A DNA stretch of 64,000 bases from Candidatus Promineifilum breve (GTDB lineage Bacteria; Chloroflexota; Anaerolineae; Promineifilales; Promineifilaceae). Positions 10,199-13,983 of this stretch are shown here, piece by piece (the stretch's first letter is position 1; each line of letters starts with the position of its first letter). The notes beneath the pieces were generated by a model. That model saw nothing but the letters and a program-made list of their open reading frames with translations. It made no database searches and was not told the origin of the DNA. The stretch is from the NCBI RefSeq assembly GCF_900066015.1, contig NZ_LN890656.1, positions 124,001 to 188,000 on the forward strand. The letters run 5' to 3'. The position numbers and the translations under genes were made by a program.

Positions 10199-10360
10199 AC
10201 CACAGATTACACAGATTTCGCAGATTTAAGATTCTTCTTTAAATAATCTGCGAAATCTGCGTAATCTGCGGCTCGATCTCTTCTTCAATCTGTGCCATCT
10301 GTGTAATCTGTGGATTCTCTTCTCTTCATTCGTCATTCGTCATTCGTCATTCGTCATTAG
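10199..10360. repeat. N2 9-mer hairpin plus H4 heptamers between convergent genes
   Basis: Spaced ACAGATT/GCAGATT motifs followed by their complements, then four CATTCGT heptamers running up to the end of the glycosyltransferase gene. Well placed to stop transcription from both sides. Confidence 0.8.
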
Positions 10361-13300
10361 CAACAGCCGGTCAGCCGCCGGTTGGCCGTCCGGCCCCAGC
10401 AGCGGCCAGCGCGCACCGCTGGCCCGGTCATAGAGGCCGAATTGCAGCGTATAGGCGCCCGGCGGCAGGTCGGGCGGCAGGGGCAGGCGGGCCAGTTGCA
10501 GGAAGCGGTCGCCGGGCTGCCAGGTGTGGGGCGGGTAGCCGAGGCCATCGTCCTGGGCCACGATGGCCCCGTTGGCGTCGAGCAGGTGGACAAACATCGC
10601 CAGCGACAGGAAGCGCGCCGGGCCGGTCCGCCAACTGGTCAGCACGGTCAGCTCCGCGCCGGGGACGGCCGGGCCGGGTTCGATGCCGGTCAGCCACAGC
10701 GCCGGCGCGACGGCCGCGCCGGGTTCGCAGGCGCAGAAGGGGATGGGGTAGATGGGTGATGCCGTGGTGCTGCTCTCCGGCGGCAGGGTCAGGGCCGGGG
10801 TGGGCAGGGTGGGCCAGTTGGCGGTGGAGAGGTGGTAGAGGGAAAACAATCCTTTCGCATAGTCAGTTTGGGATGTGGGATGGGATTGGTTGGTGGTGGG
10901 GTTGGCTGTAACGGTTTGGCCGGTTGGGTTGGTTGCGGCCGTCGCGTTCGTTGCGGCTGGCGTCGCGGGTTGAAGCCATGCGGGTTGAGACACCGTGGGT
11001 TGAGGCCACGCGGGTTGAAGCCATGCGGGTTGAAGCCACGCGGGTTGAAGCCACGCGGGTTGAAGCCACGCGGGTTGAAACCCGCGGCTGGCAAACAAAA
11101 CCCGATAAATCGGGTTGAAGAGGGTTGCGCCACGGGGTGCGGTGTTGGCGATTGGGTTGGGAATGGGAGCGGCCGTCGGGGCCGCCATGTTCGTCGCACC
11201 CATCGCCGCGGGTTCAAACCCGCGGCTGGCAAACAAAACCCGATAAATCGGGTTGAAGAGGGTGGCGCCACGGGGTGCGGTGTTGGCGATTGGGTTGGGA
11301 ATGGGAGCGGCGGTCGCGGCCGTCGGGGCCGCCATGTTCGTCGCACCCATCGCCGCGGGTTGAAACCCGCGGCTGGCAAACAAAACCCGATGAATCGGGT
11401 TGAAGAGGGTTGCGCCACCGGGTGCGGCCCAACCAATTCGCTCATGCGCGGCGCGGGCAACCGGCTTCAGCCGGTTTTGTGTATCAGCGGCGGGATTCAT
11501 CCCGCCGTATGACGCGGTTATTCTATTCGTGTTCGAGACGACCGCGCTGCCTGTGGTTTCCCCATCAATCAACTCTAGCGCGGCACCGGCAACCGGCTTC
11601 AGCCGGTTTTGTGTATCAGCGGCGGGATTCATCCCGCCGTATGACGCGGTTGGGTTAACAAAATAATCAAGTGTCGCGTAGGGGTCAGGCAACCGGGAGA
11701 GACGTCGCTGGGAAACAGGCATACTCCGCTCCCGGTTGCCTGACCCCTCTTCGACCATGCCCAAAGAAGGCGAGGCGGCGGCGAGACAAGGCCCATTGTT
11801 TCCAGCTACGTCAACAACCACCAGAGGGCGAGGCGGCGGCGAGACAAGGCCCATCGTTTCCACCACGCCCATCGCCGCCAGAGGGCGAGGCGGCGGCGAG
11901 ACAAGGCCCATCGTTTCCACCACGTCTATCGCCGCCAGAGGGCGAGGCGGCGGCGAGACAAGGCCCATCGTTTCCACCACGCCCATTGCCACCAGAGGGC
12001 GAGGCGGCGGCGAGACAAGGCCCATCGTTTCCACCACGTCTATCGCCGCCAGAGGGCGAGGCGGCGGCGAGACAAGGTTCGTTGTTTCAACCACACCCAT
12101 CGCCGCCAGAGGGCGAGGCGGCGGCGAGACAAGGTTCGTTGTTTCAACCACACCCATCGCCGCCAGAGGGCGAGGCGGCGGCGAGACAAGGCCCATCGTT
12201 TCCACCACGCCCATCGCCGCCGCCTCGCCCCTACAACGCATCATTTCGCCGACATTCCCGCGCCCCTGCTCCCCTGCCCCCCCGCTCCCCTGCGCCTCTT
12301 CACCCACCCACGCCATCAACACCGGATCAATCCACCGGTCGGCGGTGACGATCAGCCACGCCTCATCGGCCCCGGCGGGCAGGGCCAGGGCCTGGGACGT
12401 ATCGACCCAGCGCCGGTCGATGGCCCGGTCGAGGCTGACGCTGACGATGTAGGGGTCTTCGTCCTCGATGTCGCGGCTGCTGATGACCACCGGGCGGCCG
12501 TCGGCGGCGTGCTCCAGGAAATCGGCCACGGCGGCGATCTCCCGGTTCAGGGGATGGACGTCGGCGAATTGCTCCGGCCAGACGTGGAACAGGTCGCGGA
12601 TGGTGGCCTGCGCCGTCAGAGCCAGCGCAGCCAGCACGACCAGCGCGGCGACCAGTGACAACGCGGCGACCCCACGAGCCGGCAGCCGGCGGGTGGCGAG
12701 CCAGGCCGATGTCTCGGCCGCCGCCACGGCGGCCAGAAAGAAGATGGGGAATTGCGCCGCCACCATGCGGTTGAAGTTGGGGGCGCTGATGGTGACCACC
12801 GTCGGCAGCAGGGCCACGACCAGCCACAGCAGCACGAAGGCGTAGGCCGGCCGCCGCCAGCGCCACACGGCCAGCGCCAGCCCGGCATAGAAGAACAAGC
12901 CCGTCCAGCGCGGCACGAAGAGCGGCCGGCCGGGCAGGTTGTACGATTTCAGCGGGTCGCCGGCCACGGTGAACACTTTGGCCGTGGCGACGAGATTGTC
13001 CAGCACCGGCCGCGGATTGCCGGCCAGCAGTTCGGTTAACGGCTCGATGGAGAAGGCGCGCTCGCCGACTTCCACCGGCGTGGCCCGGCTGAGCACCAGG
13101 ACGAGGGGCAGGGCTACGGCCGCGGCCGACACCCCCCACACCAGCCAGCCGCGCCGGTTGGCCCACGCTGAGCGCCGGTGACACAGCGCCAGATAGACCC
13201 CAAACCCGCCGAACAGCAGCGGCACAAAGCGCGCCGGCTGGTAGGTGTAGGCGGTTAGGCCGAGGAGGATGCCGGCGATGAGGAAGGGGAGGATAGTGGC

Positions 13301-13840
13301 GGGTGGCGGGTGGCGGGTGGCGAGTTCCGAAGCGTGACTCGCCACCCGCCACCCGCCACCCGCCGCGCGAAACGCCCACCAGAAAGCCCACGCCGCCAAC
13401 CCCAGCAGCAACGCCAACGAGATGTGGCGCACGCCGAAGCGGGCGGCCCACACCGGCCACATGGCGACGGCCAGCCAGGCGGCGGTCAGCAGCGCCGCCA
13501 TCCGGCCATGCAGCCGCCGGGCCAGGGCATAGCTAACGCCGATGAGGGCCAGGCCGAACAGGGCGGCCGTGGCCCGCAGCGCCAGCGGGTTATAGGCCAC
13601 CAGCCGCAACATGAGCGCCGCCGGGTAGTAGTAGAGCGCCTCGCGCCCCCAGCCCTCGGGCGTATAGATGAGGCGCGCGCCATGCAGCACGTCAAGGGCG
13701 ATTTTCAGGTCGATGGCCTCATCGAAGTGGAAGCCGGGGGGAACGTCGAGCAGCCGATAGAGGCGCAGGGCGGCGGCCACGAGCAGGATCGCCGTGAGCG
13801 CGATGAGTTCCAGGAGCAGCAGGCGGCGGGCGTCCTTCAT
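10340..13840 (-). CDS. GT-C (PMT/GT39-like) membrane glycosyltransferase with giant in-frame repeat insert
   Basis: 1166 residues. Residues 1 to about 500 are the membrane glycosyltransferase, with the loop motif FHFDEA near 38-43 (the acidic pair of GT-C enzymes) and about ten hydrophobic segments. Residues about 510-997 are encoded almost wholly by repeat DNA, including eight about 57-base units (19 residues such as MGVVETMGLVSPPPRPLAA), and stay open in one frame. The last about 165 residues resume as a plausible beta-sandwich domain (TVLTSWRTG.., YTLQFGLYD). A second small H2 insert lies near residues 156-182. ATG 13840 was chosen: it precedes the first membrane helix and has TAGAAT 8 bases upstream. 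Glycosyl donor and acceptor unknown; polyprenyl-phosphate sugar and protein or lipid are the family norm. Confidence 0.82.
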   Translation of the reverse strand: MKDARRLLLLELIALTAILLVAAALRLYRLLDVPPGFHFDEAIDLKIALDVLHGARLIYTPEGWGREALYYYPAALMLRLVAYNPLALRATAALFGLALIGVSYALARRLHGRMAALLTAAWLAVAMWPVWAARFGVRHISLALLLGLAAWAFWWAFRAAGGGWRVASHASELATRHPPPATILPFLIAGILLGLTAYTYQPARFVPLLFGGFGVYLALCHRRSAWANRRGWLVWGVSAAAVALPLVLVLSRATPVEVGERAFSIEPLTELLAGNPRPVLDNLVATAKVFTVAGDPLKSYNLPGRPLFVPRWTGLFFYAGLALAVWRWRRPAYAFVLLWLVVALLPTVVTISAPNFNRMVAAQFPIFFLAAVAAAETSAWLATRRLPARGVAALSLVAALVVLAALALTAQATIRDLFHVWPEQFADVHPLNREIAAVADFLEHAADGRPVVISSRDIEDEDPYIVSVSLDRAIDRRWVDTSQALALPAGADEAWLIVTADRWIDPVLMAWVGEEAQGSGGAGEQGRGNVGEMMRCRGEAAAMGVVETMGLVSPPPRPLAAMGVVETTNLVSPPPRPLAAMGVVETTNLVSPPPRPLAAIDVVETMGLVSPPPRPLVAMGVVETMGLVSPPPRPLAAIDVVETMGLVSPPPRPLAAMGVVETMGLVSPPPRPLVVVDVAGNNGPCLAAASPSLGMVEEGSGNRERSMPVSQRRLSRLPDPYATLDYFVNPTASYGGMNPAADTQNRLKPVAGAALELIDGETTGSAVVSNTNRITASYGGMNPAADTQNRLKPVARAAHERIGWAAPGGATLFNPIHRVLFASRGFQPAAMGATNMAAPTAATAAPIPNPIANTAPRGATLFNPIYRVLFASRGFEPAAMGATNMAAPTAAPIPNPIANTAPRGATLFNPIYRVLFASRGFQPAWLQPAWLQPAWLQPAWLQPAWPQPTVSQPAWLQPATPAATNATAATNPTGQTVTANPTTNQSHPTSQTDYAKGLFSLYHLSTANWPTLPTPALTLPPESSTTASPIYPIPFCACEPGAAVAPALWLTGIEPGPAVPGAELTVLTSWRTGPARFLSLAMFVHLLDANGAIVAQDDGLGYPPHTWQPGDRFLQLARLPLPPDLPPGAYTLQFGLYDRASGARWPLLGPDGQPAADRLLLMTNDE
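10850..12310. repeat. 1.46-kb mosaic of at least five repeat families inside a CDS
   Basis: Read leftwards: O8 octamers; eight copies of a 57-base P3-containing unit (about 11775-12230), the last degenerate; a P2 palindrome (about 11690-11755); two P4 units (TASYGGMNPAADTQNRLKP); three units starting GATLFNPI; and about six 15-base units (WLQPA). All in the glycosyltransferase frame. Confidence 0.88.
13293..13372. repeat. In-frame H2 heptamer hairpin in glycosyltransferase gene
   Basis: GGCGGGT run, short loop, then complementary CCCGCCA run; encodes GGGWRVA..ATRHPPPA between two membrane segments. Confidence 0.85.
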
Positions 13841-13848
13841 TAGATTGG

Positions 13849-13854
13849 ATTCTA
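13849..13854 (-). promoter_or_regulatory. Putative leaderless -10 box of the glycosyltransferase gene
   Basis: TAGAAT 8 bases before ATG 13840; no SD. Confidence 0.5.
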
Positions 13855-13983
13855 GCATGGCCGCGCGGACTTAGAAACTCGGTTTCCATGAGCATCTTTG
13901 CACCGATGGCCCGCCTTTGCTACCCTTGCACTACGTTGGGCCGCTCCGCGCGGGCGGCCGAAAATAGAGAAGGATGTGAAACC

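What the first reader, a model, noticed from the sequence alone, without database searches (positions are those of the whole stretch)
10850..12310. A 1.46-kb patchwork of five repeat families is kept in frame inside a glycosyltransferase
About 490 codons between the membrane domain and the C-terminal beta-rich domain are built from O8 octamers, eight 57-base units, a P2 palindrome, P4 elements and 15-base WLQPA units, all families that are intergenic elsewhere in this window. The reading frame survives throughout and the known domain resumes after it. This looks like a platform where repeats accumulate under selection for an open frame, producing a new low-complexity extracytoplasmic linker.
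Basis: seen in the sequence. Interest (0 to 1): 0.8.

Follow-up and report, generated by a model that had tools for sequence, protein, structure and literature searches.

The report
Junk-DNA repeats stacked inside an enzyme
In a Chloroflexota bacterium, 1.4 kb of normally intergenic repeat DNA (hairpin elements plus short tandem repeats) sits in frame inside one loop of a membrane sugar transferase, and smaller repeat patches sit in loops of housekeeping enzymes, so 'junk' repeats become protein loops here as they are known to in Rickettsia, but on a larger scale.

Summary
The 1172-codon frame (10340-13858, minus strand) is open, and codons 522-998 (window 10865-12295) are repeat-derived DNA absent from full-length homologues. 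Those are 691-699 aa and join the flanks directly. The 15-nt WLQPA array occurs nowhere else in the stretches examined.

The open frame is not chance: every other frame has 4-16 stops, and 0 of 192 frames in real repeat-bearing regions stay open over 933 nt. Every tandem period in the insert is a multiple of three. Residue-level selection is not visible.

The insert lies in a loop of the predicted extracytoplasmic alpha/beta domain, before its last strand. It is not an isolated case. MurE, MiaB and a MoaD-MoaE fusion carry in-frame repeat inserts that congeners lack or replace, and about 2.4% of sampled genes hold 7/8-mer patches.

Best reading: Rickettsia-type colonisation of permissive loops by intergenic repeats, extreme in size and layering. 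Any benefit is unproven. Array length rests on one assembly.

The parts
10340..13858 (-). host gene: GT-C-fold membrane glycosyltransferase-like protein, 1172 aa
   Evidence: ORF; homologue model resembles AglB and ArnT; weak PMT_2 and TIGR04154 hits below cut-off
12296..13858 (-). membrane domain plus most of the extracytoplasmic alpha/beta domain (codons 1-521)
   Evidence: 46-53% identical to full-length homologues L029, L032, L034
10865..12295 (-). repeat-derived insert, codons 522-998 (477 codons)
   Evidence: absent from homologues of 691-699 aa; the only open frame of six
12254..12295 (-). O8 octamer patch (AQGSGGAGEQGRGN)
   Evidence: TRF 12263-12293; many other copies in the genome, in and between genes
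11653..12253 (+). single E1 element (GTAG-tagged double hairpin with imperfect terminal inverted repeats), internally expanded; outer limits approximate
   Evidence: alignment of about 35 genomic copies
11676..11755 (+).
   Evidence: inverted repeat I5; fold z -6.5
11765..12221 (+). eight 57-nt units: left arm plus loop of E1 hairpin 2, one copy in nearly all other E1 elements
   Evidence: TRF; alignment; closing arm at 12214-12232
11587..11651 (+). E2 double hairpin, copy 1 (P4)
11455..11512 (+). E2 double hairpin, copy 2 (132-nt period with copy 1)
11354..11415 (-). E2 double hairpin, copy 3 (opposite orientation)
11207..11268 (-). E2 double hairpin, copy 4
11069..11130 (-). E2 double hairpin, copy 5
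10964..11087 (-). 15-nt (QPAWL) tandem array, likely a local expansion of an E2 hairpin arm
   Evidence: TRF; no match in the other own-genome stretches searched
10865..10963 (-). non-repeated Thr/Asn/Ala-rich end of the insert
   Evidence: no repeat match (query 10851-10964)
10343..10864 (-). last strand of the alpha/beta domain and C-terminal beta domain
   Evidence: 40-43% identical to homologues
13296..13364 (-). heptamer (GTGGCGG/CGCCACC) inverted-repeat patch in a loop between membrane helices of the same gene
   Evidence: TRF; inverted repeat I2; alignments

Best explanation
The insert is the product of in-frame colonisation of a permissive protein loop by the genome's own intergenic repeats, followed by in-place amplification. 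Inferred steps: octamer DNA, E2 (REP-like) hairpins and one E1 hairpin element entered a surface loop of the extracytoplasmic alpha/beta domain; E2 was probably moved by the IS200-type Y1 transposase that it flanks on the same replicon. Parts of these elements were then duplicated in tandem, and at each step only changes that kept the frame open survived, because the C-terminal strand and beta domain are still needed. Shown: the repeat families and their genomic copies, the uninterrupted flanks in homologues, the open frame, periods in multiples of three, and the same phenomenon in MurE, MiaB and MoaD-MoaE. Inferred: the order of events, mobility of E1 and E2, expression, and that the insert is mostly tolerated rather than useful.
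For: Homologues join the two flanks through a loop of about 10 residues. The homologue model places that loop (residues 510-522) between helix 504-509 and strand 523-529. E1 and E2 have dozens of other genomic copies, nearly all outside genes. An IS200-like Y1 transposase at C2:284376-284717 is flanked on both sides by E2 hairpins. The open frame is far from chance. In-gene tandem periods over 8 are multiples of three in 43 of 47 cases against 14 of 26 between genes, Fisher p = 6e-4. Parallel cases: MurE carries a 56-aa E2 insert and a 37-aa octamer/heptamer insert, and a congener has a different octamer insert at the same second site; MiaB, 82-86% identical across the genus, has an octamer insert, and MoaD-MoaE has a 39-nt triplicate in its linker.
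Against: No transcript or peptide data. The nearest orthologues in the genus are truncated by contig ends, so the age of the insert is unknown. Mobility of E1 and E2 is inferred from structure and from the neighbouring transposase; target-site duplications were not established. Some openness is intrinsic to the elements: single E1 copies are open in 29% and E2 cores in 54% of frames.
Confidence: 0.75

Rival explanations
1. Adaptive length-variable segment: the tandem 57-, 138- and 15-nt arrays act like a bacterial VNTR that tunes a surface-exposed loop of the transferase, and selection favours the insert itself.
For: Three different tandem expansions in one loop, all frame-preserving; domain predicted extracytoplasmic.
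Against: No bias of unit differences to third codon positions; codon usage not coding-like; similar patches lie in cytoplasmic enzymes of unrelated function such as MurE, MiaB, glycyl-tRNA synthetase and ParB, which argues for general tolerance.
Confidence: 0.1
2. Decaying gene: the insert disrupted the transferase and the frame is open only because the event is recent.
For: Tandem units are still about 91-97% alike; many paralogues exist that could make the gene dispensable.
Against: Several separate insertion and expansion events with no stop or frameshift; both flanks keep strong coding bias (0.42 and 0.37) and a conserved C-terminal domain; the same process is seen in essential genes.
Confidence: 0.1
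3. Assembly artefact: copy number or joining of repeats at this place is wrong.
For: Repeats of this kind break short-read assemblies; in congener G007 the contig ends, with adapter-like sequence, just before the C-terminal domain.
Against: The genome is in three contigs; the junctions are in frame, which a misassembly would preserve only by luck; equivalent smaller inserts in MurE, MiaB and MoaD-MoaE are too short to be assembly problems.
Confidence: 0.05

Closest known systems
Rickettsia palindromic elements (RPE; Ogata 2000, 2002, as described in the review PMC10969869)
   Same: Short palindromic repeats inserted in frame into unrelated, likely functional proteins; same families also occur between genes
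   Different: Different repeat families and phylum; RPEs are about 150 bp, here stacked and amplified to 1431 nt, mixed with octamer arrays
GTAG-tagged REPs / BIMEs and their RAYT transposases, including intragenic REPs (PMC3733652)
   Same: E1 starts GTAGGGG and ends CCCCTAC; E2 is a double hairpin that flanks a Y1 transposase gene; GTAG repeats are reported in Chloroflexi; intragenic copies are known
   Different: The paper gives REP-encoded regions of 43-82 aa as its larger cases, against 477 here; the transposase scores as IS200, below the REP-transposase cut-off
Enterobacterial RU elements found intragenically (PMC2759123)
   Same: MITE-like repeats with open frames inside annotated genes
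   Different: Described as units of 103-168 bp; no stacking or tandem growth of this kind is mentioned in the abstract read
Heptanucleotide short tandem repeats (STRRs) of cyanobacteria (from my own knowledge; not read here)
   Same: Abundant 7-mer arrays like the GCCACCC, CACTGAC and ATTCGTA families here
   Different: Recalled as mainly intergenic; here also in frame in about 2% of sampled genes together with octamers
GT-C glycosyltransferases ArnT and AglB (host protein)
   Same: Predicted fold of the uninterrupted homologue
   Different: Extra C-terminal beta domain and the repeat insert; sequence hits to PMT_2 and TIGR04154 are below cut-off

Membership tests
In-frame intragenic palindromic repeats (RPE-like phenomenon) | same element family present between genes in many copies | tested here: met
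In-frame intragenic palindromic repeats (RPE-like phenomenon) | element in frame inside a conserved gene, absent from homologues | tested here: met
   GT; MurE
In-frame intragenic palindromic repeats (RPE-like phenomenon) | protein made with the element translated | not testable with these tools
   needs proteomics
Rickettsia RPE / CGTC repeat families | CGTC terminal tag and sequence similarity to RPEs | not tested
   E1 carries GTAG-type ends instead; no RPE sequences were compared
GTAG-tagged REP (E1) | palindrome tagged by GTAG at one end, often as inverted dimers | tested here: met
   GTAGGGG...CCCCTAC ends around two hairpins in aligned copies
GTAG-tagged REP (E1) | associated RAYT gene flanked by the same repeat | tested here: not met
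   none of the three Y1_Tnp loci is flanked by E1
REP/RAYT unit (E2) | tyrosine transposase gene flanked by the repeat | tested here: met
   Y1_Tnp at L088:1930-2430 with E2 at 1495-1924 and 2535-2641
REP/RAYT unit (E2) | transposase belongs to the RAYT subgroup | tested here: inconclusive
   NF033573 IS200 85.5 bits over cut-off 55; NF047646 REP transposase 29.1 bits under cut-off 80
MITE (E1) | terminal inverted repeats | tested here: met
   imperfect: TTAACAAAATAAT..GTAGGGG against TTAACAAATTAATGCGGTGTAGGGG
MITE (E1) | target-site duplication | not tested
   ends too variable between copies to define
GT-C glycosyltransferase (host protein) | GT-C membrane fold | tested here: met
   Foldseek AglB 7e9s E 2e-10, ArnT 5f15 E 1e-9, with modest TM-scores
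PMT_2 Pfam family (host protein) | score above the curated cut-off | tested here: not met
   PMT_2 16.1 bits under cut-off 26.1

The most novel reading that the evidence does not exclude
In Promineifilum, intergenic repeats of three unrelated kinds (E1, E2 and 7/8-mer arrays) are a standing, genome-wide source of new protein loops and linkers. They enter housekeeping proteins, grow in codon multiples, and some become functional segments; the 477-codon insert of this transferase is the most advanced case.
Probability: 0.25. Interest if true: 0.75.

Novelty: new variant of a known kind. Interest (0 to 1): 0.55.

Why it matters
In-frame insertion of small palindromic repeats into proteins is known mainly from Rickettsia and from scattered REP cases. 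This genome shows it in a Chloroflexota lineage, with unrelated repeat classes stacked in one loop and amplified to 477 codons. The same process is visible in essential enzymes whose uninterrupted versions exist in species of the same genus. That gives a natural series (no insert, one insert, a different insert at the same site, a stacked and amplified insert) in which the growth of new protein segments from non-coding DNA can be followed and tested.

Tried and rejected
Five independent families: rejected after aligning genomic copies. Openness as a trivial effect of high GC: rejected, although single elements are often open. Orthologues in the genus to date the insert: both close ones end at contig ends (G005 at residue ~390, G007 at adapter-like sequence before the C-terminal domain). 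The first protein alignment misplaced the C-terminal part; it was redone with the flanks joined. E1-specific transposase: none of the three Y1_Tnp loci has E1 nearby. Codon-position test on the 57-nt units: no evidence for residue-level selection. Literature: no Chloroflexota report of stacked in-frame repeats found in the held library; the Ogata 2002 paper is not held, so RPE details come from PMC10969869 and PMC3733652.

Full report
What was checked. The window is C2:124001-188000 of a 5.03-Mb, three-contig genome. A same-genus genome (G005) holds a contig of the same length and match as a record named Promineifilum sp. SSF11, so the host is a Promineifilum-type Chloroflexota bacterium. The finding lies in a 1172-codon frame on the minus strand, 10340-13858.

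The host protein. Sequence profiles barely recognise it: PMT_2 and an archaeal STT3 model score below their cut-offs. Full-length homologues of 691-699 aa exist in other genera of the family. A model of one (L029, mean pLDDT 83.5) resembles the GT-C enzymes AglB and ArnT. After the membrane helices comes a small alpha/beta domain (about residues 440-530) and then a beta domain. In GT-C enzymes of this type the soluble part is extracytoplasmic (established knowledge), so the same is inferred here.

The empty site. When the flanks of the window protein are aligned with homologues, AWVGEE (codon 521) is followed almost directly by the strand LFSLYHLSTANW (homologue: FWHIPTKPITQTTEFAVYPFQQPNW). 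Identity is 46-53% before and 40-43% after the site. In the model the site is the loop 510-522 between helix 504-509 and strand 523-529. The insert is therefore codons 522-998, window 10865-12295, 1431 nt. It breaks a domain just before its last strand; it is not a spacer between two domains.

What the insert is made of. Genome searches and alignment of the copies show that the '57-base units' and the 'P2 palindrome' are parts of one element, E1. It has an outer imperfect inverted repeat, the end GTAGGGG, a first hairpin (GGGTCAGGCAACCGGGA / TCCCGGTTGCCTGACCC), a second hairpin (GGGGCGAGGCGGCGGCGA / TCGCCGCCGCCTCGCCCC), and the end CCCCTAC. About 35 copies exist, most on the 1.0-Mb contig C2. 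Nearly all have one second hairpin; in this gene its left arm and loop occur eight times, followed by the normal closing arm and right end. 'P4' and the 138-nt repeats are copies of one double-hairpin element, E2 (AACCGGCTTCAGCCGG(G)TT...GCGGGTTTGAACCCGC), with dozens of genomic copies. The 15-nt array was not found elsewhere in the stretches searched and probably grew from an E2 arm (inference). The octamer GCTCCCCT is common in and between genes.

How E2 may move. An IS200-like Y1 transposase gene at C2:284376-284717 has E2 hairpins on both sides, the arrangement described for REP elements and RAYT transposases (PMC3733652). It scores above the IS200 cut-off and below the REP-transposase cut-off, so its subgroup is open. 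No transposase could be linked to E1.

Is the open frame more than chance? Over the insert the coding frame has no stop; the others have 10, 14, 4, 16 and 5. With duplicate units removed (933 nt) the others still have 9, 10, 4, 8 and 4; a first-order Markov null gives P(open) about 0.004, and none of 192 frames in real repeat-bearing stretches is open over that length. Single elements are often open (E1 29%, E2 54% of frames), so they are easy to read through one at a time, but the stack is not open by luck. All tandem periods in the insert (57, 15, 132, 138, 147) are multiples of three. Arrays of the same elements outside the gene mostly have periods such as 86, 97, 98, 188 and 190. In the sampled DNA, in-gene arrays of period over 8 are multiples of three in 43 of 47 cases against 14 of 26 between genes. 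There is no sign of constraint on the residues: unit differences fall 5:5:1 on codon positions 3:2:1, and codon usage of the insert is neutral (-0.02) while both flanks look coding (0.42, 0.37).

It is not an isolated case. MurE (TIGR01085 396 bits) on contig C1 carries a 56-aa E2-derived insert and a 37-aa octamer/heptamer insert, both missing from four congeners; a fifth congener has its own, different octamer-derived insert at the second site. MiaB, 82-86% identical across the genus, has an octamer insert at a variable inter-domain site where the nearest relative has another octamer-like stretch. A MoaD-MoaE fusion has a 39-nt triplicate in its linker that congeners lack. In a systematic 464-kb sample, 9 of 377 predicted genes (2.4%) hold internal 7/8-mer patches: 17 patches inside genes against 46 between genes, although 87% of the DNA is predicted coding. 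Hosts include a glycyl-tRNA synthetase fusion, ParB, a type ISP methylase and a second GT-like protein with several patches. So genes are strongly avoided, but loops and linkers that tolerate extra residues are repeatedly used. The gene prediction behind these counts is a simple codon-usage script, so the numbers are approximate.

Interpretation and limits. The simplest account is entry of repeat DNA into tolerant loops, tandem growth, and removal of every variant that breaks the frame. This works like the Rickettsia palindromic elements (PMC10969869) and the intragenic GTAG/CGTC REPs (PMC3733652), where the larger REP-encoded regions reported are 43-82 aa. It is a larger variant of that known kind: different elements, three classes stacked, tandem growth to 477 codons. 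Not shown: translation, mobility of E1, order of events, benefit to the cell, age (congeneric orthologues are truncated at contig ends), and the exact array length, which rests on one assembly.

Noticed in passing
L084:650-2563 (G000:C1:2194800-2197900): MurE with two in-frame repeat inserts (56-aa E2, 37-aa octamer/heptamer); a congener (G001) has an independent octamer insert at the same second site.
   Followed up: yes
L113:17591-19021 and L118:10806-11693: MiaB with an octamer insert between UPF0004 and radical-SAM domains, and a MoaD-MoaE fusion with a 39-nt triplicate (PPLPPGEGWGEG) in its linker, lacking or different in congeners.
   Followed up: yes
window:3-3320: Second GT-like/DUF2298 gene carrying several separate in-frame octamer and heptamer patches (AGEQGSRGAG, ATRHSPPATRH, SGQWSVVSGQ).
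   Followed up: partly
window:4516-7728: Type ISP restriction-modification enzyme with an in-frame heptamer patch (YSGQWSVVSGQTDH).
   Followed up: partly
G000 contigs C1 (3.99 Mb) and C2 (1.00 Mb): E1 and E2 copies are several-fold denser on the 1.0-Mb contig C2 than on C1, so the smaller contig carries most of the hairpin-repeat load.
   Followed up: partly
L088:1495-2641 (about C2:283794-284940): IS200-like Y1 transposase gene bracketed by arrays of E2 hairpins, a REP/RAYT-like unit.
   Followed up: partly
L028:3550-4875 and L030:4887-6242: Homologues in other species carry different heptamer-like peptides in loops (ELGIRNDELGIRNEE; TVHRLPFTVHRLPITV), suggesting the process is wider than this species.
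   Followed up: no
L036:1930-2135 (G007:C285): Contig end contains Nextera adapter-like sequence just upstream of the C-terminal domain of the closest orthologue.
   Followed up: no
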